A stretch of 64,000 nucleotides of DNA, from the IMG/VR virus record IMGVR_UViG_3300032053_005343, positions 1 through 64,000 of that record; one strand, given 5' to 3'. The translations under genes were made by a program, and so were the position numbers. This document shows, piece after piece, positions 4,463 to 43,956 of the stretch. Every line of letters begins with the position of its first letter. The stretch's first letter is position 1. A model generated the notes under the pieces. That model was not told the DNA's origin. It saw nothing but the letters and a program-made list of their open reading frames with translations, and made no database searches. The DNA comes from a virus.

Positions 4463-4969
4463 ATGGAAACTTGGAGAAATGTACGTGGATATGAAAATAT
4501 CTACCAAATATCGAATAAAACTTTTGTCAAAAATATAAAAACTGGTAAAATTTTGAAGCAAAGACTTACCCATAATGGATATCTGTATGTTAGGTTGTCT
4601 AAGAATGGATTGGGAACGATTAAAAATATTCATGTTTTGATGCTAGAAGCATTTATTGGTCCGAGACCAATTAATTGTGTTTGTAGACATTTGGATGGCA
4701 ATAAATTAAATAATAATATCAATAATTTGCGATGGGGAACAAGATCTGAAAATGCACAAGATTCTATTAAACATGGAACTTTTCATATTCCAGACAACAG
4801 AGGATCTAAATGTGAAACCTCTAAATTGAACGACTTACAAGTAAGTATAATTAAAAAATTATTAAAAGATAACTATTTGACACATAAAGAAATAGCAATA
4901 ATATTTGGCGTTAGTGCTCGTAATATTAGGGATATCAAAAATGATAAAATATGGAGACATATAAAATGA
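4463..4969 (+). CDS. HNH homing endonuclease (NUMOD4-HNH-HTH)
   Basis: 168 residues. Order: N-terminal NUMOD4 motif (METWRNVRGYENIYQISN), an HNH core with LEAFIGPRP, CRHLDGNKLNNNINNLRWGT and SENAQDSIKHGT, then a C-terminal helix-turn-helix (THKEIAIIFGVSARNIRDI) ending IWRHIK. This free-standing nuclease is expected to cut an allele lacking it and spread by repair. Its last codons TGG AGA CAT supply the GGAGA Shine-Dalgarno of the next gene, whose ATG overlaps the stop as ATGA at 4966-4969. Paralogues lie at 43174, 54831, 60266 and 62671. Confidence 0.88.
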   Translation: METWRNVRGYENIYQISNKTFVKNIKTGKILKQRLTHNGYLYVRLSKNGLGTIKNIHVLMLEAFIGPRPINCVCRHLDGNKLNNNINNLRWGTRSENAQDSIKHGTFHIPDNRGSKCETSKLNDLQVSIIKKLLKDNYLTHKEIAIIFGVSARNIRDIKNDKIWRHIK

Positions 4970-9077: not shown

Positions 9078-12000
9078 GTGGCTATAGGATTCAAAGGTAT
9101 CCTAGATTTTATAGGATATCCTGTCGGTACACCAAGTCTTTCAATAAATAATAATTTAAATTTATCTATATGTGGACACGATTCCATAATATATAATGAA
9201 TCAAAGTTGTACTTTGCGGACGATGCTTCTGATAGGATGTGGAGATCAAACCTTGATGGAACAAATATATTATTGATCGCTTCTGGTTCTCCCGTAATAG
9301 ATGATCCTTCGAGATCTATTAATGCCAATATATTTACAGATAAAATTTATTGGATTAATACGGACGATATACTACAAATTAGAAGAGCTAATATTGATGG
9401 TAGTAATTATGAGATTTTAGTATCTGGTTCCGATACATCTAATGGCGATGGATTAAAAATTATTCCATCCAAAAATTTAATGTATTGGACGGATACTTCG
9501 GATAATAAAGTTTCTAAATCAGATTTATTAGGAAATAATATAGCAGTAATATACGATTCTTCTGGAATTTATCAACCAGATGCAATAGATTATGATCCAA
9601 TAGAAGAAAAAATATATTGGACAAATACATTTTCATTTGGATCACTGTCTTATAATATAACAAGATTTAATTTAGACGGTAGTGATGTAGAAATTATATT
9701 ATCAAATCCAGAGTTTATTCCAGGTCTTTTTGATAGCGCTCCAGTAAGCATAGCGATAGATTATATTATAAGAAAAGTATATTGGGGACAAGAACCACTT
9801 GACACTTCTCTTCCGTGTATTTTTAGGGCAAATTTAGATGGAACAAATATTGAAACTATTATTCCAAGTGGTTTTCATTCTATTGAGTCGTTGTCAATAG
9901 ACTTTTTAAATAGAAAATTGTATTGGTCAGACAGAACAGTTGTGGGAAAAATTTTAAGATCTAATATGGATGGTTCTAATATAGAAACTTTATCAATTTC
10001 TCCCCCTCTTGGTAATGAAATAGTTCCATTAACTATATATCAAAGACCATACATGAATCTTTCTATAAACGGAAAAGATACGATAAATAATTCTTGTGAC
10101 TTATTTATTAAATTTGTAGAATCTATTGATAGTAACATTAATTTATTTATAAAAGGGAAAGATTCACAAAATCAAAACCTAGACTTATTCATAAATGGAT
10201 TTGATACAGAAACCCAAAATCTAGATTTGATTATTGTCGGAAATGAAATATCTACAAATGATATAGATCTTTTCGTTGACGGAAAAGTCTCGGATAATGA
10301 AAACCTAGATTTGTTTATTGGTGGGAAAGAAGCAGAATCCAATGATTTAGATTTATTTGTTCATGGGAAAGACAGCAAGACAAACAATTTAGATCTTATT
10401 GTTTCTGGCAGGAATACGCAAGATGAGAACATTGATTTAATAATAACTGGAAATGAATCTAAAAATAATAATATTGATTTATTTATACATGGGCAAAATA
10501 CAGTAAATGAAAATATTAATCTTTTTGTAGAAGGAAAAGAAACATCAACTAATTCATTAAATTTATTTATTTATGGGCGAGATACAAATACTGATAACCT
10601 TGATCTAATAATTACAGGATATGAATCCTCAAATAAATCTCTGGATCTATTTATACGCGGATTTGAGACAGAAACTCAAAACTTAGATTTGTTTATTATT
10701 GGTCATAACAATTTTAACAATAATATAAATTTATTTATTGATGGAAAAGATTCAGAAACCCGTGGCCTAGATCTCTTTATTCGCGGTAAAGATAATCAGA
10801 CTGAACAAATTGATCTATTCATCAAGGGATTGGAGACAAATAATCAAACCATAGATCTCTTCTTGTCTGGTAAAGATACAGAATCTCAAAATCTAGATTT
10901 ATTCATTAATGGCTTAGGCGTCAATAGCAATAATATTGATTTGTTTGTTCAGGGAAAAGAAACTCAATTTGATTCTTTAGATCTATTTATACAAGGGAAA
11001 GACAGCGAGACAAACAGTCTAGATCTTATTATTTCTGGCAAAAATACACAAAACGAGAGCATTGATTTAATAATAACTGGCAGCGAATCTAAAAATAATA
11101 ATTTGGATTTAATCATAATTGGTGAACAGGCAAATACAAGTGTATTAGATCTTTTCATCCACGGTTTTGATTTCGCCAATAATAACATTGATTTATTTAT
11201 AAATGGGAAAAATACCCAGTCTAATAATTTAAATCTTTTTATATCTGGGAAAGAAACACAAACCAATTCATTAGATTTATTTATATCGGGTAAAGATTCT
11301 TCAACAAATAATATTGATCTTTTCATTAACGGAAAAGCCTCGAATAACGAAAATCTAGAGTTATTTATACATGCCCATGATTTTGTTGATACTAACATAG
11401 ACTTGTTCATTGGTGGGAAAGAAGCAGAATCAAACGATTTGAATTTCTTCATTCGTGGCAAAAATACTCAAACTCAATCAATCAATTTATTTATACCGGG
11501 AGAGGATTCACAAAGCCAAAGTCTAGACCTATTTATAAAAGGTTTCGAAGCAAACAATAAAAATATAGATTTAATAATATTTGGTAAAAATATAGAGTCG
11601 CAGGAATTAAATTTATTCGTTCATGGAAATGAAACAAAGATAGCTAATACAGATCTCTTCTTGTCTGGCAAAGATTTTGTTGCGAATATTTTCGATCTTT
11701 TTATCAAAGGATTCGAGACAAACTCTGATAGTGTAGATTTATTTATATCCGGCAAAGATTCTGAAAATCCATTTTTAAATCTATTTATATCCGGTAAAGA
11801 TTCTAAAAATAATGACATAAATTTATTCATAAGTGGCAAAAATAATCAAAACAATAGTTGTAATTTATATATTTCGGGTAAAGACACAGAAAATAAAAAT
11901 TTAGATCTTGTTGTTTTTGGTTTTGAAATAAATTCTGAAAATATAGATCTTTCTATTCGTGGTAAAGATATACGAACCGAATCACTTGATTTATTTATTT

Positions 12001-13646
12001 ATGGAAAGGGTTCGTCAACAAACAATGTTGATCTTTTTATTATAGGCAATGGGACAAAAATTAACACCGTTGATTTATTCATTTCTGGAATATCAGAACA
12101 AATAATATTTAATTCGATAGATCTTGTTCTTGTTGGAAAAGATGCCGAGAATAATAGCATAGATTTATATATTGAAGGGCTTGACACAAAAAATCAGAGT
12201 TTAGATCTTTTCATAAATGGAAGTATTCAAACAGCTAATAACATAGATCTGTTTATAACGGGGAACAATAATAAACAGCAGAAATTGGATTTATTTATAC
12301 GCGGGAGTGAAACAAATACACAAGCATTAAATCTCTTTATCGAAGGCAAGGATACAAGAACTAATAATATCGAATTATTTATTAAAGGAAAAGATGCCGA
12401 ATTTAAACAAATAGATTTAACAATAACAGGGAAAGATAGCGAGACAGAATCAATAGATCTTTTCCTGTCCGGTAAAAATACAGAAAATCAAAATCTAGAC
12501 TTATTTATAGGTGGATTTAATACAAATACAAACAATTTAGATCTTTTTGTTCATGGCAAAAATGTTGTAAATAATAATTTAACATTATTTATTATAAACA
12601 TAAATTCATCATCTAATTCTATTGATCTGTTTATCTCTGGACCAATCTCTACAAATAATAATCTTAACCTATTTATACAAGGCAAAGATCAAAATAACAA
12701 TAATATTGAACTATTTATAAATGGTTCGAATGCTTCTAATGAAAACATTGATTTGTTTATAGACGGGTTCGATTCCCAGACAAACAATTTAGATTTAATA
12801 ATAATTGGTAAAGATACAAAGTCTCAGGAATTAAGTTTATTTGTTCGCGGGAGTGAAACAAATACCGAAACCATAGATCTTTTTCTGTCTGGCAAAGAAT
12901 CTATCACAGACATTGCCGACTTTTTTATAAAAGGATTCGATACAAATTCTAATGCTTTAAATTTATTTATCCACGGCTCCAATTTTGTTGATAATGATTT
13001 AACTCTATTCATTTCTGGTCCAATTTTAATAAATGGAAATATTGATTTATTCTTAAAGGTTTTAGAAGCAAGGCCATTAGATTTATTTATAGAAGGACGA
13101 GTACAACCACCAATTGTTTCGTGTCCAATATTAGACCCAGAAGCATCTATTCAAATAAGTGATGAATTAATAGGAATTTATCAGTCGAGAATTGATGCTC
13201 TTATTAATCAATTAGGAAAGAATGTTTTATTAGAATTTGATCCGATAATAGAACCTTGCACAAATTGTTTCCAAAATATAATAGAACATAGATCGAACGG
13301 CATTTACAAGCCTGGAGGACCGATTCCCTTCGACAGAGGCCAAAAGTGCCCATATTGTAAATCTATTGGTTTTCTTGAAAGATCGGTAAATAGGTGTATT
13401 AAATCGTTAGTGCAATGGAATGGGCGTGACAATGAAAGTTACAAGATTAGCGTTCAACATGGAGGCGGGATTGTCAGATTAAAGTCGTTTTTATCGGATG
13501 GACCTTATTTGATCAAAGCTAAAAGCTGTGTCACCAATTACGATACATCTAATATTTTTAAATTGAGGGTAAAAATAATAAAGGGACCAATTATTTTAGG
13601 GTTGCGAAATGAGAGATATTTGACAACTTACTGGAAAATGATTTAA
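9078..13646 (+). CDS. giant fibre: YWTD propeller + ~70 repeats + zinc-ribbon neck domain
   Basis: 1522 residues from a GTG start with a GGAGA RBS. Residues 40-320 form a YWTD/LDL-receptor-B-type beta-propeller with six blade motifs (LYFADD, IYWINT, MYWTDT, IYWTNT, VYWGQE, LYWSDR), each followed by an xNxDGxN turn. Residues about 325-1337 are roughly seventy 14-residue units (NxLDLFIxGKDxxx). Residues about 1340-1522 copy the whole zinc-ribbon domain of the 5512 gene (CPILDPEASIQISDE, IYQSRIDALINQLGKNV, CTNC, CPYC). The C-terminus would anchor the protein at the neck or tail and the repeats would project the propeller outward. Domain calls are strong; the anchoring model is inference. Confidence 0.75.
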   Translation: MAIGFKGILDFIGYPVGTPSLSINNNLNLSICGHDSIIYNESKLYFADDASDRMWRSNLDGTNILLIASGSPVIDDPSRSINANIFTDKIYWINTDDILQIRRANIDGSNYEILVSGSDTSNGDGLKIIPSKNLMYWTDTSDNKVSKSDLLGNNIAVIYDSSGIYQPDAIDYDPIEEKIYWTNTFSFGSLSYNITRFNLDGSDVEIILSNPEFIPGLFDSAPVSIAIDYIIRKVYWGQEPLDTSLPCIFRANLDGTNIETIIPSGFHSIESLSIDFLNRKLYWSDRTVVGKILRSNMDGSNIETLSISPPLGNEIVPLTIYQRPYMNLSINGKDTINNSCDLFIKFVESIDSNINLFIKGKDSQNQNLDLFINGFDTETQNLDLIIVGNEISTNDIDLFVDGKVSDNENLDLFIGGKEAESNDLDLFVHGKDSKTNNLDLIVSGRNTQDENIDLIITGNESKNNNIDLFIHGQNTVNENINLFVEGKETSTNSLNLFIYGRDTNTDNLDLIITGYESSNKSLDLFIRGFETETQNLDLFIIGHNNFNNNINLFIDGKDSETRGLDLFIRGKDNQTEQIDLFIKGLETNNQTIDLFLSGKDTESQNLDLFINGLGVNSNNIDLFVQGKETQFDSLDLFIQGKDSETNSLDLIISGKNTQNESIDLIITGSESKNNNLDLIIIGEQANTSVLDLFIHGFDFANNNIDLFINGKNTQSNNLNLFISGKETQTNSLDLFISGKDSSTNNIDLFINGKASNNENLELFIHAHDFVDTNIDLFIGGKEAESNDLNFFIRGKNTQTQSINLFIPGEDSQSQSLDLFIKGFEANNKNIDLIIFGKNIESQELNLFVHGNETKIANTDLFLSGKDFVANIFDLFIKGFETNSDSVDLFISGKDSENPFLNLFISGKDSKNNDINLFISGKNNQNNSCNLYISGKDTENKNLDLVVFGFEINSENIDLSIRGKDIRTESLDLFIYGKGSSTNNVDLFIIGNGTKINTVDLFISGISEQIIFNSIDLVLVGKDAENNSIDLYIEGLDTKNQSLDLFINGSIQTANNIDLFITGNNNKQQKLDLFIRGSETNTQALNLFIEGKDTRTNNIELFIKGKDAEFKQIDLTITGKDSETESIDLFLSGKNTENQNLDLFIGGFNTNTNNLDLFVHGKNVVNNNLTLFIININSSSNSIDLFISGPISTNNNLNLFIQGKDQNNNNIELFINGSNASNENIDLFIDGFDSQTNNLDLIIIGKDTKSQELSLFVRGSETNTETIDLFLSGKESITDIADFFIKGFDTNSNALNLFIHGSNFVDNDLTLFISGPILINGNIDLFLKVLEARPLDLFIEGRVQPPIVSCPILDPEASIQISDELIGIYQSRIDALINQLGKNVLLEFDPIIEPCTNCFQNIIEHRSNGIYKPGGPIPFDRGQKCPYCKSIGFLERSVNRCIKSLVQWNGRDNESYKISVQHGGGIVRLKSFLSDGPYLIKAKSCVTNYDTSNIFKLRVKIIKGPIILGLRNERYLTTYWKMI
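10050..13088 (+). repeat. ~3 kb of coding 42-bp tandem repeats
   Basis: About seventy in-frame 42-bp units, one per 14-residue LDLFIxG motif. Amino-acid positions 4-8 (DLFI.G) are nearly invariant while third codon positions vary freely, so selection acts on the protein. Large non-coding ORFs on the - strand here are mirror frames of the repeat. Confidence 0.85.
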
Positions 13647-14337: not shown

Positions 14338-15246
14338 ATGAATAGGTTTATAGATTTAAGGGGGCAAAGATTTGGAAGGCTTTTGGTGCTGTTGTATGTT
14401 GGAAACACCATGCTGAGATCAGCCAAATGGCTTTGTAAATGCGACTGCGGTAATGAGAAAATAATTAATGGATACTCACTTAGAAATGGAGATACAAAAA
14501 GTTGCGGATGTTTGCAGAAAGAAAAACTTGTGCAAAGAACTAAGATTAATGCCAAATTTAGAAAAGGATGTTGGCAGAAAAAAGAAGATGATATTTTAAA
14601 ACAGTTTTATCCAGATAATGGTCCTGAATATTGTTTCAAATTATTAGACAGAACAAAAAAGGCGGTAATGGGCAGAGTAAGAAAACTTGATTTAAAAGTT
14701 AAATATGCTTTTAATACTGGTTTACCAAAAAAAATCATAATTAAAAAATTGTCGAACAATAGAGTTATTTCTAGATGTGAAACGCACGGAGAAACTGAGC
14801 ACTACTATTATAACAACAAAAAGATAGCGTCTTGTATGCAATGTAAACGTCTTAATAGTAACAAATGGAGAAAACTTCCAATTAATAATTTTGCAGAAAA
14901 TTTAAGATCTTTAATTAAACATGCTTTTAAAAAAATTCACAATAAAAATGGTAAACTTATACAGGGTCGTTGCTTTAAAAATCTTGATTATACTCCAATA
15001 CAACTATACAATTATCTTAACAATATTCAAAATTTACAAAATAATAAATGTCCATATTGTGATGTCTCTTATGATAAATGTAAAATAAGCATAGATCATG
15101 TAATCCCACTTTCAACAGCTAAAACAACACAAGAAGTTATAGATTTGTTTGATTTAAAAAATCTCAATCTTATGTGCAAAAATTGTAATTCACAAAAATG
15201 GAAACATGATTATAGTCTCTGGAGTAAAACTCATGTCATTAAATAA
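14338..15246 (+). CDS. zinc-ribbon HNH homing endonuclease, paralogue of 6103
   Basis: 302 residues with the same order as the 6103 gene: zinc ribbon (GQRFGRLLVLLYVG...WLCKCDCGN...TKSCGCL), Myb/HTH-like part (CWQKKEDDILKQFYPDNGPEYCFKLLDRTKKAVMGR), Cys pair (SCMQCKR), and HNH (NNKCPYCDVSYDKCKISIDHVIPLSTAK...NLNLMCKNCNSQK). The downstream gene starts inside this ORF at 15233. The TGG AGT codons (Trp-Ser) at the end provide its GGAG RBS, so the nuclease is interlocked with the structural gene. Confidence 0.87.
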   Translation: MNRFIDLRGQRFGRLLVLLYVGNTMLRSAKWLCKCDCGNEKIINGYSLRNGDTKSCGCLQKEKLVQRTKINAKFRKGCWQKKEDDILKQFYPDNGPEYCFKLLDRTKKAVMGRVRKLDLKVKYAFNTGLPKKIIIKKLSNNRVISRCETHGETEHYYYNNKKIASCMQCKRLNSNKWRKLPINNFAENLRSLIKHAFKKIHNKNGKLIQGRCFKNLDYTPIQLYNYLNNIQNLQNNKCPYCDVSYDKCKISIDHVIPLSTAKTTQEVIDLFDLKNLNLMCKNCNSQKWKHDYSLWSKTHVIK

Positions 15247-16165
15247 TTTCAAAAGTGTGGGGGTCGGAGGCTATGCAGGTTATGAACTAACCGATCAACT
15301 GCTTTATAATATTAAAGGGTTTTTAGACTGGGGACTACTTCAAAAGGGTGGTTATAATTTCTATCTATTAAACCAAGATAGTTTCTTTGCCGAAAATGAA
15401 TCTAAGCTTCGAGTTACCCAAGACGGAAGATACCCGCCAAATTGCATGTGGGAGGGAGTTGGAGAATGGGTTTGGGAATCTGGTGTAGTTCCAATGAGTG
15501 GGGGAGTTGCACCATTTCGTCCATCGGGAGTTTACATAAACGGGAATTTTATTCCATCCTCAAGCACTGGACCAAGTAGACATCATTTTGATTTTCCCAA
15601 CGGTCGAGTGATCTTCGAGGAGAGCCAAAATGCTGACGACGATATAAGGGCGGAATATACGAGCCGTAATGTTCGTGTTAGATTTTCTGATAGTGCCGAG
15701 TTTCAAAACCTAATGCTGGAATCAATTGAGGAATTCCTCTCTAACACAGTTCCATTAGCTACGCCCTCTAAATCAAATCAAGCTTGGCTTCCCTCTGTTT
15801 TTGTGGAGGTCCAGTCAGGTTCGGGGAAGGGTCTTATGTTAGGAGGAGGACAGACAAAATTTAGGACAATAGTTCTTCACATCTTCGCAGATTCTCCAGG
15901 AGAGAGAAATCTTTTAATGGATCTTCTAGATTATAATAATAGAACCGCATTCACTATGTTCGATCTCAATAAAATTCCATTTCCATTAGATGAATTTGGA
16001 TCACCGATTCCAGGGGCAACAAATTGGATTGACCTCATGGCCCAATATCCCTGGAGAAAGTTAAGAATTCAGGACGGAAGTTGTAAAACAATAAATTCTT
16101 TAAACACAAAACTATTTAGAGGCACAGTAACTTGGAGGTGCGAGATCGACATTGGTTCAATTTAA
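15233..16165 (+). CDS. probable tail/virion structural protein
   Basis: 310 residues from ATG 15233 (MSLNNFKSVGVGGYAGYELTDQLLYNIKGFLDWGLL), chosen over an upstream in-frame start because GGAG at 15221-15224 is correctly spaced. Features: a beta-rich central part ('GVYINGNFIPSS...HHFDFPNGRVIFEES'), then 'VEVQSGSGKGLMLGGGQTKFRTIVLHIFADSPGERNLLMDLLDY', reminiscent of tail-terminator or phage stabilisation proteins. At 310 residues it is too small for a contractile sheath. Its TAA overlaps the stop of the convergent Mom-fusion gene. Confidence 0.48.
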   Translation: MSLNNFKSVGVGGYAGYELTDQLLYNIKGFLDWGLLQKGGYNFYLLNQDSFFAENESKLRVTQDGRYPPNCMWEGVGEWVWESGVVPMSGGVAPFRPSGVYINGNFIPSSSTGPSRHHFDFPNGRVIFEESQNADDDIRAEYTSRNVRVRFSDSAEFQNLMLESIEEFLSNTVPLATPSKSNQAWLPSVFVEVQSGSGKGLMLGGGQTKFRTIVLHIFADSPGERNLLMDLLDYNNRTAFTMFDLNKIPFPLDEFGSPIPGATNWIDLMAQYPWRKLRIQDGSCKTINSLNTKLFRGTVTWRCEIDIGSI

Positions 16166-18315
16166 ATAAGTGATATAGAATATTTCTTCTTAGGTAAAAG
16201 ATTTATTTTTATTAATCCTCTTTCTTTAGCCAATTCTAATTCTGTTTTATCTATTCCCTTAATTCTTCTACAATATGATTTGTGCCTAAGTTGATTTGTG
16301 TTTGGGTCAAAATAACAATAACTGGATTTGGTTTTACCCTCTTTCTTCCAACCAGACATTCGATAAACTGCGCCATCATGTCCAACATTTGGATCGGCAT
16401 ATGATATTAATTGTTTAATATTTTTACAATTTTCTTTAATATAATCTACGCACATATTTAAAAATTTAATAGTAAACGGCCTGACAACATAGTATGGTAC
16501 GCATAGGCGAGTTAATTCCCAATAATCTTTTGGCATGTTTTTATTTGCTCCTCGTCCGAAAATAGCAATTCCCGCTATTATCCCATTAATTTGAGCGGTT
16601 AAAATTATTGTATGAGGAGGAATTGTTCCTAGATAATGTTCGTATCGAATAATCCTTTTAATTTCTTCTGTTATGTTTGATGTACATACTTTTGCGTCTT
16701 GCCCATTTAATTGTCCATCTTCATTAAAAGACAAATATTGTTCTTCTGTAAAATTAAAATTTTTCAGCGCGAAATCAGGAAAAGATTGCCATATTTTCCA
16801 ATAAGGATGACAATCCCTTGATGTTTTTTCTATAACTTTGTGTTCTTCTTCTGTTATAACCAAGCCATTATCAGTATCATAAAACCTAGAATCATTTGTT
16901 AGTGCTAGTGTGAATTTTTCATTTTCTAAACATTTATGTTTTGCCAAAGAGGAATTAAAAATATTTTTAAAAGGATAAACGTGATGACATTGAATATTTT
17001 CGTCGCACCCACTTATTTCACTAGCCCTATTAGAAAGAATAAAACATTTAATTTTCCATTCGAGATAGGGTGTAGAGGTTCTAATAACTTTATTAAACGG
17101 ACTTATTCCACCTTTCCATCCAGAACTATTTTCTCCATAAAATGGTCTTATTGTAATTCCATTATCTTTTAAAATATTTCCCGCGCCAACATCGGAACAA
17201 CCGACTATTCTTGCAGCTTCAGATATAAACAGTCCAGATTTATATAAATCAATTATTTTATTTTTATTATCTTCCGGGATAAAATCTCGTCTAATTATTA
17301 TATTGTTTTTATTAAGTATTTTTCTTATGGTTATATTAGAATAATTTAAAATTTTAGCTATTTCATTTATATGTTTGCCAGACTTATATAGTTCTATAAT
17401 TTGTTTAACATCAACCTTTTTAGAGGTACGAACACCAAGCCTATAAAGAATACTAGACACTTGTTTTATAGACATATTTAATTGATGAGAAATTTGTAAC
17501 GTATTTAAGGAATTATTTTTATATAGATTTAATATAATACTTCTTATTTCGCTGTCACGTTTTTTGTGATTGATAACTTCTATATTGTTTTTAATTAAGA
17601 ATGTTTTTATAGTGTCGCTTTTACAATTATAAATTTTACTTATATAATTTAAGGTTTTGCCTTCTTTGTAAAAAGATATAATACCCTCTTTATTTTTGTT
17701 CAAAAAATTTGGTATATCTAGATGTGTAGATATAAATTTTACGTGATATTTTCTTAAAATGTTTTTAATTTCTGTCCAAGAACATCCTATTTTTTTTGAT
17801 ATCTGAGAAATGTTCATTCCGTTGTTGTAAAGATCAACAATTTTACCATGTTTTTCGCTTCTTAAAGTTTTTCTTGATCTTAACCACCCATTTTTTCTAA
17901 GTTTTATATTATTTTCAATCAATAGTTTTCTAATTAAACCTCTTGATCTATTAACTATTTCTCCTATTTCTTTTGGAGATTTTCCTCCGTTGTATAACTT
18001 TAAAATTTGATTAAAATCTATATCTCTTTTTTCTTCAAATTTCTTTTGAATCTTTCTTTTATTTAAAATACAATACAGAGATCCTGGATCTTTTATTTGA
18101 TATTTAGTAAGTATATCTTTAATAATCATTCCATTTTTATAATCTTCTATAATTGAATTTTCTTTTTCTATTGTTTCTGGCTTAAATTTATTTCTTATAA
18201 TATTATTTTTATTTAATATTTTATAGATATACCATTTTTGTATCCCAAACTGCTTCTCCAGGGTGGAAATCGGTGTATTATTTTTATAGGACTCAATAAG
18301 CGCATTTTCATTCAT
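16162..18315 (-). CDS. fusion: 8x HTH array - HNH nuclease - Mom-like GNAT domain
   Basis: 717 residues from ATG 18315 (an in-frame TTG lies 18 nt upstream; I prefer the ATG). Residues 1-392: eight tandem units of about 40-50 residues of type 'IIELYKSGKHINEIAKILN', each a predicted helix-turn-helix. Residues 393-505: an HNH region (GENSSGWKGGISPFNKVIR, QCHHVYPFKNI, NGLVITEEEHKVIEK). Residues 550-690: a Mom-family/GNAT-like domain (EIKRIIRYEHYLGTIPP, IIAGIAIFGRG, YWELTRLCVP, ISYADPNVGHDGAVYRMSGW). Mom of phage Mu modifies adenine in DNA by carbamoylmethylation. Whether this domain modifies DNA, or has been recruited to a homing nuclease for another role, is open. Confidence 0.8.
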   Translation of the reverse strand: MNENALIESYKNNTPISTLEKQFGIQKWYIYKILNKNNIIRNKFKPETIEKENSIIEDYKNGMIIKDILTKYQIKDPGSLYCILNKRKIQKKFEEKRDIDFNQILKLYNGGKSPKEIGEIVNRSRGLIRKLLIENNIKLRKNGWLRSRKTLRSEKHGKIVDLYNNGMNISQISKKIGCSWTEIKNILRKYHVKFISTHLDIPNFLNKNKEGIISFYKEGKTLNYISKIYNCKSDTIKTFLIKNNIEVINHKKRDSEIRSIILNLYKNNSLNTLQISHQLNMSIKQVSSILYRLGVRTSKKVDVKQIIELYKSGKHINEIAKILNYSNITIRKILNKNNIIIRRDFIPEDNKNKIIDLYKSGLFISEAARIVGCSDVGAGNILKDNGITIRPFYGENSSGWKGGISPFNKVIRTSTPYLEWKIKCFILSNRASEISGCDENIQCHHVYPFKNIFNSSLAKHKCLENEKFTLALTNDSRFYDTDNGLVITEEEHKVIEKTSRDCHPYWKIWQSFPDFALKNFNFTEEQYLSFNEDGQLNGQDAKVCTSNITEEIKRIIRYEHYLGTIPPHTIILTAQINGIIAGIAIFGRGANKNMPKDYWELTRLCVPYYVVRPFTIKFLNMCVDYIKENCKNIKQLISYADPNVGHDGAVYRMSGWKKEGKTKSSYCYFDPNTNQLRHKSYCRRIKGIDKTELELAKERGLIKINLLPKKKYSISLI

Positions 18316-18322
18316 ACAATAT

Positions 18323-18328
18323 ATTATA
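18323..18328 (-). promoter_or_regulatory. -10-like TATAAT upstream of the Mom fusion
   Basis: TATAAT ends 7 nt before ATG 18315, and no Shine-Dalgarno is present between the LAGLIDADG stop and this ATG. It fits the leaderless-promoter pattern with slightly longer spacing. Confidence 0.45.
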
Positions 18329-18333
18329 CGCAA

Positions 18334-19452
18334 TTAAAATGAAATTAAAGATCTATTTTGAATATATTGTGGTTTCCATTCGCAAATCCTTTTATAATTT
18401 TCGTATTTTCTATCAAGATAAATTTTTGAATTATCATATAAAAATTGAATAATTATCTTAGCTGGTGTACAGCCGTAGCTTATATGTGCAAAATTTTTAT
18501 TTAAATCTCTTTGTCTAATTTTTATTGTTTTTCCTATAAAACTCCTAAAATTTTCAACAATATCTAACGTTCCACAAAGACCAATAATAGGGTATCCCTT
18601 TTTATTAATACTAACCCATCCATCTCCGTCAACCATCCCTCTCCAAAAATGTAGATTTTTCTTTAATTGTTCTGGAACTTTTGCTGTTAAACTTTTACGT
18701 TCTGTTATTCCAAATTCTTCTAATTTATTTTGAATTTTTTTAGAATAGAACGCTATAAAAACATATTTATTATTTTTATATAATGGTTTTGTACAATTCA
18801 AGAATTTTTTTAATTTTTCTAGATGTTCCCAATCGGATTCTTGTAATCCAAAGTTGATAGAATTACTATTTCTATCCCCTTTATAAATATTTCCATCGGA
18901 TAAAGTGAACCCTATCCAATAAGCAGATTCTTCATTTATTTCATCGAATACATTTTCATTTAAATTGTATCCATATCTATCTCTTATCGCTTCAGAGTGA
19001 GTTTTAATTTCAATGTTATTTCTTTTAAGAAAATCTGTAATTGTTACATCGGCAACACCATATTTAAAACCCAGTTGTTTTGCAGATATACCATCCTTAT
19101 ATTCTAAAATAATATCATTGGCCGATTCACAATCTGGTTTCCAAATGTCGGATCTTGGCGTTCTATAATTTCTTAATTCAACATTATTTTCTAATAAAAA
19201 TTTTTCTATTCTTCCAGAACTTGATTTATATAATTTGGTAATATATTTAATACTTTTTCCCTCATTATATAAAGTGACAATCTTATTATCAAGGAAGGCT
19301 GGTGAGTTATTTTTCCTTGTTTCTATGTTTTTTGATTTTAATATTCTTGTTATAAGACCTTCCGAAACACTAAAATATCTTCCTATTGCCGAAGCCGATT
19401 CGCCATCAGCGTATCTTTGTAAGATTTCTGTATGATGTAATTTCGAAAACAT
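18334..19452 (-). CDS. LAGLIDADG homing endonuclease with 3x HTH
   Basis: 372 residues. Residues 1-150: three tandem HTH units (EILQRYADGESASAIGRYF, KIVTLYNEGKSIKYITKLY, DIILEYKDGISAKQLGFKY), the same unit type as in the next gene. Residues 175-350: a LAGLIDADG nuclease with both motif helices, AYWIGFTLSDGN (about 177-188) and FWRGMVDGDGW (about 269-279), each with its acidic residue, so one chain has a complete pseudo-dimeric active site. The start ATG lies 5 nt after a TATAAT box. It is followed 18 nt later by the Mom fusion, forming a two-gene island on the strand opposite the tail genes. Confidence 0.9.
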   Translation of the reverse strand: MFSKLHHTEILQRYADGESASAIGRYFSVSEGLITRILKSKNIETRKNNSPAFLDNKIVTLYNEGKSIKYITKLYKSSSGRIEKFLLENNVELRNYRTPRSDIWKPDCESANDIILEYKDGISAKQLGFKYGVADVTITDFLKRNNIEIKTHSEAIRDRYGYNLNENVFDEINEESAYWIGFTLSDGNIYKGDRNSNSINFGLQESDWEHLEKLKKFLNCTKPLYKNNKYVFIAFYSKKIQNKLEEFGITERKSLTAKVPEQLKKNLHFWRGMVDGDGWVSINKKGYPIIGLCGTLDIVENFRSFIGKTIKIRQRDLNKNFAHISYGCTPAKIIIQFLYDNSKIYLDRKYENYKRICEWKPQYIQNRSLISF

Positions 19453-19561: not shown

Positions 19562-20626
19562 ATGGCTCAATTTCGGCAATTTTATGCGACCCAGGCGCTT
19601 GGTTTTGCTCCGCACGATACTGTAAACCCAGACCCAAGTGGCGAATTTGAACCATCGGGATTTATTACAGCTAATGGTGTGCAAAGTGTGGGGCTTACCA
19701 CAACTTTTAATTTGGAGCAAGTGTTCGAACTCGGTCAATTAGATTTATATGAAAATATCGAAGGAATCCCGGACATCGAACTTACTGCTCAGAAGGTATT
19801 AGACGGTTATCCTCTACTTTATCATCTAGCAACGCCAGCCGCAACCTCTCCTACATTAGTCGGTCGATCTAACGAACGATGCTATGCTGCTTTGAATCTT
19901 TATCCAGACACAAACGATAATGCTTCTGGTACTCCACTACAGTCAATCGGTATGTCGGGAATGTTTGTTTCTGCGTTAACATATACGCTTAATGTAGAGG
20001 GAAATTCTACTGAAGATATTACATTAGTTGGAAACAACAAGGAATGGTTTGCATCTGGTTTGTTTGGTGGCTCGCCAATGTTTACATCAGTTGGATTTGA
20101 TGGTTTTGATAGTCCTCCTGGTAGTGGTGGGGTTCAAAGACGAGAAGATGTCCTAATGGGCTCTGGTGTAAGCGGTAGTCTATGGCCCACGGTAATTCCT
20201 GGAATTCATGCGAGCGGATGGAACGTACAGGGAGGCGACGGCGTATTTGGCGCGCATCTTCAAACAGCTACGATTTCAGTAGATCTAGGGAGAACGGATT
20301 TGTTTGAACTGGGTCGCAGAGGACCATATCATAGGTTCGTGTCCTTCCCAATAGAAGTTACATGCGCAATAGATGTTACCACAAGCGAAGGAGATCTTGT
20401 TGAGGCGCTGGCTGATCCTCCGGGCGGAACCAATCTCGTTGACCAAACAATTAAAGTATACATGAGAGAGGGGACGATTATAGACTTGGGTACAAAGAAC
20501 AAACTGGCATCAATAACGTATGGTGGAGGAGACAGTGGCGGGGGAAATGTGACAACAAGCTTCAATTTTTCGACCTTCAATCAACTTGTTGTCACGTCGC
20601 CCGCCGACCCTGCGGGATTAAGTTAG
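19562..20626 (+). CDS. probable major tail tube protein
   Basis: 354 residues, acidic, beta-rich, with no membrane segment or enzymatic motif. Features: MAQFRQFYATQALGFAPHDTVNPDPSGEFEPSG, 'TTTFNLEQVFELGQLDLYENIEGIPDIELTAQKVLDGYPLL' (a pattern typical of tail tube proteins, with strand-helix and 'PDVE' motif), and 'LQTATISVDLGRTDLFELGRRGPYHRFVSFPIEVTCAID'. It is a single-gene unit: its own promoter region upstream and a strong terminator directly after, as expected for a highly expressed major structural protein. It precedes the tail chaperone and tape-measure genes in the usual order. Confidence 0.62.
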   Translation: MAQFRQFYATQALGFAPHDTVNPDPSGEFEPSGFITANGVQSVGLTTTFNLEQVFELGQLDLYENIEGIPDIELTAQKVLDGYPLLYHLATPAATSPTLVGRSNERCYAALNLYPDTNDNASGTPLQSIGMSGMFVSALTYTLNVEGNSTEDITLVGNNKEWFASGLFGGSPMFTSVGFDGFDSPPGSGGVQRREDVLMGSGVSGSLWPTVIPGIHASGWNVQGGDGVFGAHLQTATISVDLGRTDLFELGRRGPYHRFVSFPIEVTCAIDVTTSEGDLVEALADPPGGTNLVDQTIKVYMREGTIIDLGTKNKLASITYGGGDSGGGNVTTSFNFSTFNQLVVTSPADPAGLS

Positions 20627-22088: not shown

Positions 22089-22637
22089 ATGATAAGGCTG
22101 CAAGACGAAATAAAGGGCGGTAAACTACAATTATTATTAGATCATAATAGTATTCAAAATAGGATTAGGGGATTAGCAAAAGAAATAATTCATTTTTATG
22201 AGTGGGAGAGAAATTGTCAATTAGTTTTAATAGCTGTAATGGATGGGGCGGGAATGTTTTTATATGATTTAATCAAACTTTTGCCTTTTAAGATTAAGTT
22301 GTATTGCATAAAAATAAATACCTATAAAAATCAAAGTAAAATTAAGAATTCTATAGTTGAAATCAATGAACTTACCGATATAGAGAATAATAATATACTA
22401 ATTATAGACACTGTATTAGATTCTGGAGAAACTTTAAATTCCGTTATTAAATCTGTAGAGACGATGAAACCAAAGACTTTAAAAACCGCAATATTATTGT
22501 GTAAAAATAGAAAGAGAGAATTTGATATTAAACCAGATTTTTGTGGTTTCAATATTGCCGATAAATGGATAATTGGTTACGGGATGGATATAGATGGATT
22601 TTATAGAAATTTGAAGGATATTTATGAAGTAAAATAA
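22089..22637 (+). CDS. hypoxanthine/purine phosphoribosyltransferase-like
   Basis: 182 residues. Type I phosphoribosyltransferase fold: 'QLVLIAVMDGAGMFLYDLI' (PPi-binding loop region), then the PRPP-binding motif ILIIDTVLDSGETLNSVI, and 'FNIADKWIIGYGMDIDGFYRNLKDIY', which matches the C-terminal purine-binding part of HPRT enzymes (PDFxGFxIPDxxVVGYGLDYxxxYRxL). It should convert hypoxanthine or guanine plus PRPP to the nucleotide, salvaging purines for phage DNA synthesis. Both Asp residues of the PRPP motif are present. The stop overlaps the next HNH start as TAATG. Confidence 0.8.
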   Translation: MIRLQDEIKGGKLQLLLDHNSIQNRIRGLAKEIIHFYEWERNCQLVLIAVMDGAGMFLYDLIKLLPFKIKLYCIKINTYKNQSKIKNSIVEINELTDIENNNILIIDTVLDSGETLNSVIKSVETMKPKTLKTAILLCKNRKREFDIKPDFCGFNIADKWIIGYGMDIDGFYRNLKDIYEVK

Positions 22638-23284
22638 TGAAAGATTTAACGGGACAACGATTTGGAAAACTTGTTGTAGATAAATATATTGGCAAAAACA
22701 AATACGGACAATCTATATGGTTATGTAAATGTGACTGTGGAAACATTGAAAAAATTCTTGGCAATAGTCTCAAATCTAATAGAACCAAAAGTTGTGGATG
22801 CTTATATATGAAGCATGGCCATTCAACAAGAGGTAAAGTGTCGAGAACATATCGTATATGGCAAGATATGAAAAAGAGATGTACTAATATAAATCATCCT
22901 TCTTATAAAGATTATGGTGGACGTGGAATTACAATTTGCGAGAGATGGATAAATAAAAAGAATGGATATAAGAATTTCTTAAAAGATATTGGAGAAATAC
23001 CACAAGGATTAACTTTGGATAGAATAGACAACAATAAATTGGTAAATGGTTATTCTCCTGAAAATTGTAGGTTGGCAACACCAAAAGAACAGGGAAGAAA
23101 TAAAAGAAATAATAAACTATATTATTATGATGGTGAAGAACAATGTGTTTCTGCTCTGGTAGAAGAATACGAGATTGGTCGCTCTACACTAAATTATAGA
23201 TTAAGGGGTGGACAATCAATAGAAGAAGCTTTAACAACCCCAGTAAGATATAAAAAAAATAATAAACAAGGGGATGTAACTTGA
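22637..23284 (+). CDS. zinc-ribbon + HNH/AP2-type endonuclease
   Basis: 215 residues. The N-terminal zinc ribbon (GQRFGKLVVDKYIGKNKYG, WLCKCDCGN, TKSCGCL) is the same module as in the nucleases at 6103 and 14338. The rest belongs to a different phage nuclease family: 'RTYRIWQDMKKRCTNINHPSYKDYGGRGITICERW', 'GLTLDRIDNNKLVNGYSPENCRLATPKEQGRNKRNN', with HNH-like D-R-I-D-N-N and E-N-C-R. The C-terminal HTH (VSALVEEYEIGRSTLNYRLRGG) probably reads DNA. The gene overlaps both neighbours, and its last codons carry the AAGGGGA RBS of the TTG-start gene that follows. Confidence 0.82.
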   Translation: MKDLTGQRFGKLVVDKYIGKNKYGQSIWLCKCDCGNIEKILGNSLKSNRTKSCGCLYMKHGHSTRGKVSRTYRIWQDMKKRCTNINHPSYKDYGGRGITICERWINKKNGYKNFLKDIGEIPQGLTLDRIDNNKLVNGYSPENCRLATPKEQGRNKRNNKLYYYDGEEQCVSALVEEYEIGRSTLNYRLRGGQSIEEALTTPVRYKKNNKQGDVT

Positions 23285-42859: not shown

Positions 42860-43181
42860 GAGAATTAATAAGTTCTTGTTCATTAAATGGTAAATATTGT
42901 TTTTTAGATATTTGCAATTTTATTTTACCTTTAATTTTTAAATCCTTATTTTTATAATCAATTTTAATATCTTTTTTAATTGTTCCTTTCCTCTTAGATA
43001 AAAGTTCTTGTTTTTGTTCTTCTGATAATATTATATCTTTTGTGTAATTTCTTGCTGATGAAGTTGATATGTTCAATTTTTTACCAATATCTATTAATGA
43101 CCAACCTAGCACTCTTAATCTTCTAGCCTCTTCTTTTGGACAACATTTGATTACTAAAGATAATTTGGAATTTTTATTCAT
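42807..43181 (-). CDS. small HTH protein linked to a homing nuclease
   Basis: 124 residues. N-terminal HTH of the form 'KEEARRLRVLGWSLIDIGKKLNISTSSARNYTKDI', then a basic linker (KRKGTIKKDIKIDYKNKDLKIKGKIKLQ) and a helical C-terminus (FNEQELINSLIEIL). No nuclease site. The start overlaps the upstream HNH gene by 8 nt. Its last 53 nt lie antisense to the fibre gene. It may be a regulator of the nuclease or a decayed nuclease that kept its HTH. Confidence 0.55.
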   Translation of the reverse strand: MNKNSKLSLVIKCCPKEEARRLRVLGWSLIDIGKKLNISTSSARNYTKDIILSEEQKQELLSKRKGTIKKDIKIDYKNKDLKIKGKIKLQISKKQYLPFNEQELINSLIEILSQNIVRTFYFQK

Positions 43182-43842
43182 CGAAATATGTCCATCTTTT
43201 CTTGTTTTTAATCATAGAAACTGATGGTTGGCTAATATTAAACATTTTTCCAATTTCTTTTTGTGTGAATTTGCCTTCTTCGGCCAATCTCTTAATATCT
43301 ACAACCTGTTTATCGTTAACTTTCGAAGATCCATGTCTTGATCCACGATTATCTGTACCATGCACAATTCTATCTGCTTGATTTTCTTTGGGCGTGCCCC
43401 AACATAAATTATCCAACCTATTATTTTGTGGGTTTCCATCAAGATGACGACACTCCATTCCCGGAGGACAGGGGCCAACGAATGTTTCTAATATTAATCT
43501 GTGTACTTTATGCTTTTTACGAACGCCATTTTTGCATAAAGTAATCTCTAGGTGCCCATAAATACCATATTTGCCCGTTTTTAATATTTTTTCTCTATTT
43601 AAATATTTTTGTGGATTTTTTCTTATATTCGCTATGTGGGTTTCACTTATCCCTGTTTGTTTAGCTATTTTTATTACTGACAAATTTTTATTAATTAATA
43701 ATATTATTGTCGTTATTTGATTTCTGTTAACACCTGTATTAAAACTTCTCGTTCTCCCGAAAGTAGAACTTTGATAAAACCCCTCGTACCCAGGTATATC
43801 TTTCCAAATTTCCTCTGTGTTTTTACAATATTCTTCGCACAT
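43174..43842 (-). CDS. HNH homing endonuclease (NUMOD4-HNH-HTH)
   Basis: 222 residues from ATG 43842 (MCEEYCKNTEEIWKDIPGYEGFYQS). The frame is open to a GTG at 43860, but that codon overlaps the TATAAT box and is unlikely. Order: NUMOD4 (IWKDIPGYEGFYQ), an extra HTH-like insertion (ITTIILLINKNLSVIKIAKQTGISETHIANIRK), HNH (LETFVGPCPPGMECRHLDGNPQNNRLDNLCWGT), and a C-terminal HTH (FTQKEIGKMFNISQPSVSMI). Inserted opposite to the two fibre paralogues that flank it. Confidence 0.86.
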   Translation of the reverse strand: MCEEYCKNTEEIWKDIPGYEGFYQSSTFGRTRSFNTGVNRNQITTIILLINKNLSVIKIAKQTGISETHIANIRKNPQKYLNREKILKTGKYGIYGHLEITLCKNGVRKKHKVHRLILETFVGPCPPGMECRHLDGNPQNNRLDNLCWGTPKENQADRIVHGTDNRGSRHGSSKVNDKQVVDIKRLAEEGKFTQKEIGKMFNISQPSVSMIKNKKRWTYFDE

Positions 43843-43851
43843 ATCTGTAAT

Positions 43852-43857
43852 ATTATA
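43852..43857 (-). promoter_or_regulatory. TATAAT before the HNH/HTH pair
   Basis: AAGTGTATAAT lies 9 nt before ATG 43842, with no RBS between. A candidate start for a very short-leader or leaderless mRNA. Confidence 0.42.
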
Positions 43858-43956
43858 CACTTTTGTCTATTATAATTTTTGAGAAAATAAATAATAATGT
43901 GTATTTATATGTGGATGATTAAATTAATTTTAAAGTTTAAAGAAAGGAATTAAAGT

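What the first reader, a model, noticed from the sequence alone, without database searches (positions are those of the whole stretch)
16162..18315. Eight-HTH array fused to an HNH nuclease and a Mom-like domain
One 717-residue chain joins a long tandem HTH array, an HNH-type cleavage domain and a C-terminal segment with Mom-family signatures (YWELTRL, ISYADPNVGHDGAVYRMSGW). Mom modifies adenine in phage DNA so that it resists restriction. A cutter and a modifier in one protein could act as a self-protecting mobile element: mark its own locus, cut unmarked ones. Alternatively the GNAT domain has been recycled as a DNA-binding or dead module; I recall phage homing nucleases with related C-terminal domains, so novelty is uncertain.
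Basis: partly seen in the sequence, partly recalled or inferred. Interest (0 to 1): 0.82.

Follow-up and report, generated by a model that had tools for sequence, protein, structure and literature searches.

The report
Mom-tailed phage HNH homing endonuclease
This is a mobile DNA-cutting gene of an uncultured phage whose protein also carries a well-kept copy of a DNA-modifying (Mom) domain, which may let the selfish gene mark DNA as well as cut it, although one residue that phage Mu Mom needs for activity is replaced.

Summary
A 717-residue minus-strand ORF carries eight three-helix HTH units, a zinc-less HNH domain and a Mom-family GNAT domain. The Mom assignment is firm: Pfam Mom 55 bits against a cut-off of 27; AlphaFold model pLDDT 89; best PDB match is phage Mu Mom 8bv8.

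The same HTH-HNH-Mom chain occurs in nine other IMG/VR loci, always just after one conserved gene (probably major capsid). That site is empty in some close relatives and holds an HTH-HNH protein without Mom in others. In the window's phage the gene lies elsewhere, and a syntenic relative is empty there. So it is a free-standing homing-endonuclease-like mobile gene. The Mom domain is its best conserved part.

Self-protection is only partly supported. Other Mom signature residues persist, but the position whose S124A mutation inactivates Mu Mom is Ser or Thr in 84 of 84 other Moms, Cys in 8 of 9 distinct HNH-Moms, and Ile in the window copy. Activity may be altered or lost.

Nuclease-Mom fusion is not new in kind: Hef-like homing endonucleases (REase type) with a related C-terminus are common in phages. 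The HNH version and its swapping at one site look undescribed: a new variant of a known kind.

The parts
16162..18315 (-). CDS of the HTH-HNH-Mom protein, 717 aa plus stop (an upstream TTG at 18333 would give 723 aa)
   Evidence: homologues of the same order
17140..18315 (-). eight tandem HTH units, residues 1-392
   Evidence: Pfam HTH families; predicted three-helix units
16816..17118 (-). HNH nuclease domain, residues ~400-500; H444/H445, N483, H492; no zinc cysteine pairs
   Evidence: alignments A3 and A6; HNH_2 match of homologue L080; strand-strand-helix core in the model
16264..16665 (-). Mom-family GNAT domain core, residues 551-684 (domain continues to the C-terminus); H560, Y561, E600, R603, D641, G645, H646, G648, Y651 kept; Ile616 at the Mu S124 position
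18334..19452 (-). neighbouring LAGLIDADG_3 protein with HTH units, in the same 3.4-kb insertion
   Evidence: LAGLIDADG_3 24.2 bits, cut-off 22.5; absent together with the HNH-Mom gene from L154
15206..16165 (+). left flanking gene, function unknown; its L154 homologue directly precedes the right flanking gene
   Evidence: 61% identity to L154 5011-5943
19562..20626 (+). right flanking gene, function unknown
   Evidence: 78% identity to L154 6001-7047

Best explanation
A free-standing phage homing endonuclease gene. The HTH array reads a long DNA target and the HNH domain cuts alleles that lack the gene. Repair from the carrying phage copies the gene in. SHOWN: the domain order, presence/absence at one fixed site, a second site in the window's phage, and strong conservation of the Mom domain. 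INFERRED: cleavage, homing and target choice. ALSO INFERRED, less surely: the Mom-derived domain still binds a CoA-type cofactor and modifies adenines at or near the site to which the HTH array brings it, so that the carrier's own target or ends are shielded from its own or rival nucleases or from host restriction. The replaced S124 residue means the chemistry may differ from that of Mu Mom.
For: Same chain in nine other loci, always right after the same conserved gene. That site is empty in L075, L076, L085, L086, L091, L094, L097 and L102, and holds HTH-HNH without Mom in L079, L080, L082, L084, L087, L088, L092, L093, L095 and L105. Supported sister pair L089 (occupied) and L091 (empty): 1,554 nt in one stand for 44 nt in the other, with flanks 88-89% identical. 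Occupancy scatters on the capsid-gene tree about as shuffled labels do (10 changes, shuffled mean 11.2). In the window the gene lies between two genes that are adjacent in L154 with a 57-nt gap. Element G+C 26.8%, flanking genes 41-46%, genome 32.6%. One homologue is broken by a stop codon (L032), as expected of decaying homing genes. The Mom domain is conserved at least about as well as the nuclease, dN 0.09-0.15 in the closer pairs. The H, Y, E, R, D, G, H, G, Y signature residues are invariant in all HNH-Moms. The model fits Mu Mom best.
Against: S124, mutated in the 'inactive mutant' structure 8bv8, is Ser or Thr in 84/84 other Moms but Cys in 8/9 HNH-Moms and Ile in the window copy. The N-x-E-S loop is also changed. 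HTH-HNH proteins without Mom hold the same site, so Mom is not needed for spread. No cleavage, homing or DNA modification has been observed. The capsid-gene tree is poorly resolved. Synonymous sites are saturated in many pairs, so dN/dS is only approximate.
Confidence: 0.45

Rival explanations
1. The same mobile homing endonuclease, but the Mom domain no longer modifies DNA. It has been recycled as a DNA-binding or docking module and is kept for that.
For: Replacement of S124 by Cys or Ile against Ser/Thr in 84/84 others; Ser is also not fixed in Hef-like relatives at the probable equivalent position (G in PA5oct, N in L069; my reading of the sequences, alignment uncertain there); sites occupied without Mom.
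Against: All other signature residues stay invariant, including D and Y, more than a mere binding surface would seem to need; the Mom domain is conserved about as well as the nuclease or better.
Confidence: 0.3
2. A single-chain restriction-modification or anti-restriction device. Mom marks the whole phage genome and HNH attacks unmarked host or rival DNA, as proposed for REase-Mom fusions of jumbo phages (PMC7824862).
For: Published proposal for REase-Mom fusions; cutter and modifier in one chain.
Against: Eight HTH units point to a long, rare target rather than many sites; close relatives without HNH-Mom gave no Mom hit elsewhere in their contigs, and carriers have a single copy; patchy presence at one site looks like a homing gene, not a genome-protection core gene.
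Confidence: 0.13
3. A mom cargo gene fused to a homing endonuclease, kept because general anti-restriction benefits the phage; the nuclease merely spreads it.
For: Mom is known anti-restriction; the module is joined to nucleases of different types (L175, Hef-like).
Against: Same S124 objection; relatives exist without it; HTH-guided placement would then serve only the nuclease.
Confidence: 0.07
4. A resident, domesticated gene near the capsid genes with a packaging or regulatory role.
For: Eight distinct relatives keep it at the same site; an HTH gene follows it.
Against: Empty and swapped alleles in close relatives; different location and strand in the window's phage.
Confidence: 0.04

Closest known systems
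Hef and Hef-like phage homing endonucleases (phage U5 Hef; PA5oct EST35_0196)
   Same: Free-standing phage homing genes with a nuclease and a C-terminal Mom-like GNAT domain (PF25680 31.5 bits in L052); 974 places in 412 phage records.
   Different: Nuclease is of the Vsr/REase type, not HNH; the Mom-like domain lacks the Tyr and the GH of the signature; no HTH array.
Phage Mu Mom (PDB 8bv8)
   Same: Best structural and profile match of the C-terminal domain; H, Y, E, R, D, G, G, Y residues shared.
   Different: Stand-alone modifier; essential S124 replaced here by Ile (Cys in relatives).
HTH-HNH homing-type endonucleases without Mom (L080, L105 and others; PHROG 8446)
   Same: Homologous HTH units and HNH domain at the very same insertion site as HNH-Mom.
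   Different: No Mom domain; the L105 type has HTH units after the HNH instead.
L175, HTH array plus PD-(D/E)XK-like nuclease plus Mom
   Same: Nearest relative of the Mom domain outside HNH-Mom, 37% over 180 aa; same overall plan.
   Different: Different nuclease (my reading of the sequence; no Pfam hit); keeps Thr at the S124 position.
REase-Mom fusions of jumbo phages (PMC7824862)
   Same: Cutter and Mom in one chain; PA5oct is named with five momylating enzymes, which matches the five Hef-like places found in it.
   Different: Interpreted there as restriction systems; a Mom-HNH fusion is not mentioned in the passages read.

Membership tests
Mom DNA modification family (PF25680) | profile score above the curated cut-off | tested here: met
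   55.4 bits, cut-off 27.1
Mom DNA modification family (PF25680) | GNAT fold closest to Mu Mom | tested here: met
   8bv8 first of PDB matches, E 6e-8
Mom DNA modification family (PF25680) | signature residues H58, Y59, E108, R111, D149, G153, G156, Y159 of Mu Mom | tested here: met
   invariant in all HNH-Moms
Mom DNA modification family (PF25680) | Ser/Thr at Mu position 124, essential in Mu | tested here: not met
   Ile616 in the window, Cys in eight relatives; Ser/Thr in 84/84 others. Filed as a Mom-derived domain, not as an active Mom enzyme
Mom DNA modification family (PF25680) | methylcarbamoylation of adenine | not testable with these tools
   needs biochemistry
free-standing HNH homing endonuclease | HNH catalytic residues | tested here: met
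   HH, N, H invariant
free-standing HNH homing endonuclease | own gene in intergenic site with empty alleles in relatives | tested here: met
free-standing HNH homing endonuclease | cleaves the empty allele and is inherited preferentially | not testable with these tools
   needs crosses and cleavage assays
Hef-like homing endonuclease | Vsr/REase-type nuclease domain | tested here: not met
   nuclease is HNH
REase-Mom single-chain restriction-modification | REase-fold nuclease | tested here: not met
   nuclease is HNH

The most novel reading that the evidence does not exclude
A self-marking homing endonuclease: one chain finds a long target with its HTH array, modifies adenine there with the Mom domain, and cuts only unmarked alleles. 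The gene would thus have a built-in epigenetic immunity, independent of disrupting its own site, and possibly a new adenine adduct because the active-site Ser is a Cys in most copies.
Probability: 0.18. Interest if true: 0.85.

Novelty: new variant of a known kind. Interest (0 to 1): 0.58.

Why it matters
Homing genes are thought to avoid self-cleavage by interrupting or altering their target. A homing nuclease that carries its own modifier would be a new immunity principle. The natural series at one site (empty, HTH-HNH, HTH-HNH-Mom) makes this directly testable. It also suggests that the 'momylating restriction systems' reported in jumbo phages are largely homing endonucleases.

Tried and rejected
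Whole-protein tblastn in annotated phages and whole-protein pattern search in IMG/VR found nothing, nor did HNH-Mom in bacterial and archaeal genomes; domain-wise searches were needed. The host remains unknown. A first tree suggested separate recruitment of Mom by HNH and by Hef nucleases. With L175 and more Moms added, the nuclease-fused Moms fall on one side of a 93/90 branch, so one origin with nuclease swaps is at least as likely; I dropped the claim of separate origins. GTATAAT lies just before both inserted ORFs in the window, but by my estimate it is no more frequent in the window than chance (33 hits, about 32 expected from base composition), so I make no promoter claim. The full-length model is poor; only its helices are used. 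The flanking 'capsid' gene has no Pfam, PHROG or annotated-phage hit; that name rests on gene order alone. The Pfam Mom search of Mom-less relatives rang nowhere in that call, but the same search rang in the window's record and in two carriers.

Full report
OBSERVATION. The minus-strand ORF 16162-18333 gives a 717-residue chain from the ATG at 18315. Residues 1-392 hold eight HTH units, seen as eight successive three-helix groups in the AlphaFold2 model and as Pfam HTH hits. Residues about 400-500 are an HNH domain without the zinc cysteines: CHHVYPF, then DNG, then EEHKVIE. Pfam does not call it. The homologue L080, alignable through this part, has a sub-threshold HNH_2 match (19.0 bits, cut-off 21, E=0.0013), and a 321-residue model (pLDDT 88.7) has strands at the HH and N motifs and a helix at the last H. 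Residues 551-684 hit Pfam Mom (55.4 bits, cut-off 27.1) and PHROG Mom-like. The best PDB fold match is phage Mu Mom, 8bv8, and a profile of the family finds 8bv8 at 5e-26. The record is a 137-kb virus contig with this single Mom.

RELATIVES AND MOBILITY. Nine IMG/VR loci encode HNH plus Mom at 46-51% identity; two of them (L024, L025) are near-identical. All have HTH units in front, about three to six by eye. Eight of the nine are intact; L032 has a stop codon after the HNH. All sit directly after one conserved 342-aa gene (capsid by gene order only) and before a small HTH gene or, in L089, the gene after it. A search with that 342-aa protein gave close relatives in which the same interval is empty (eight loci) or holds an HTH-HNH protein without Mom (ten loci). 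L089 (occupied) and L091 (empty) are sisters at 100/99 support; 1,554 nt in one replace 44 nt in the other between flanks that are 88-89% identical. On the tree of the 342-aa protein the three states change 10 times, close to the shuffled mean of 11.2, though the tree is poorly resolved.

In the window's phage the gene is at a different place, on the strand opposite to its structural neighbours, next to a LAGLIDADG gene. In the syntenic contig L154 the two flanking genes (61% and 78% identical) are 57 nt apart, so about 3.4 kb holding both nuclease genes is an insertion in the window's phage relative to L154. The element has 26.8% G+C, its neighbours 41-46%. Presence/absence at fixed intergenic sites, interchange of nucleases at one site, a second location and a decayed copy are the marks of free-standing homing genes. 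The window phage is rich in such genes: 29 further HNH ORFs of two families, 13.7% of the contig (families checked on examples).

THE MOM DOMAIN. Pairwise dN values in pairs of the capsid-site group are 0.09-0.30 for Mom, 0.10-0.35 for HNH and 0.25-0.63 for the HTH array, so the Mom part is under about as strong constraint as the nuclease or stronger. Against 84 other Mom sequences (some duplicate contigs), HNH-Moms keep H58, Y59, E108, R111, D149, G153, H/R154, G156 and Y159 (Mu numbering) without exception. Position 124 is Ser or Thr in all 84 but Cys in eight HNH-Moms and Ile616 in the window. Mu Mom S124A is called inactive in the title of 8bv8, and the numbering was checked against its sequence. 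The domain therefore looks selected and cofactor-site-like, yet lacks one residue that Mu Mom needs. Cys could substitute chemically; Ile could not. The window copy may thus be impaired even if its relatives are active.

KNOWN COUSINS. Hef-like homing endonucleases end in a related domain: 974 places in 412 phage records, and L052 passes the Pfam Mom cut-off. Hef of phage U5 cleaves nrdB (PMC2988022). A 2021 survey reads jumbo-phage REase-Mom fusions as restriction systems and counts five momylating enzymes in PA5oct (PMC7824862). PA5oct has five places matching the Hef-like query, and one is annotated Hef-like homing endonuclease between structural genes. I infer that those fusions are largely homing genes. 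L175 adds a third plan: HTH array, PD-(D/E)XK-like nuclease (my reading of the sequence) and Mom. In the wider tree all nuclease-fused Moms lie on one side of a 93/90 branch.

MECHANISM AND VERDICT. Likely: the array finds a rare site, HNH cuts alleles lacking the gene, and recombination copies it. The role of Mom is inference. Local DNA marking is my first choice; a recycled binding domain comes close behind because of position 124. Genome-wide restriction-modification is less likely, because the array predicts few sites and relatives do without Mom. Interest comes from the clean natural series at one site and the testable idea of a homing gene with its own modifier; novelty is limited by the Hef-like precedents.

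Noticed in passing
whole contig of the window, e.g. 4463-4969, 14338-15246, 22637-23284, 43174-43860: About 29 further HNH homing-type ORFs of two families (PHROG 374-like and NUMOD4/HNH_3), 13.7% of 137 kb; an unusually heavy load compared with 5 and 0 in two related contigs.
   Followed up: partly
L175 1307-3001: HTH array plus PD-(D/E)XK-like nuclease plus Mom domain (114 bits) in one chain; third nuclease type joined to Mom.
   Followed up: partly
9078-13646: 1522-aa protein with dozens of imperfect repeats of the kind 'LDLFISGKDTEN', also found in relatives; role unknown.
   Followed up: no
L032 3506-4957: HNH-Mom homologue interrupted by one in-frame stop between HNH and Mom; the Mom part stays conserved.
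   Followed up: partly
18334-19452: LAGLIDADG_3 protein with HTH units similar to those of the HNH-Mom array (34% over residues 101-253): similar array shared by two nuclease types in one insertion.
   Followed up: partly
Prevotella phage Lak-A2 MK250019.1 376070-376249: A 60-aa stretch 38% identical to the HNH part of the window protein.
   Followed up: no
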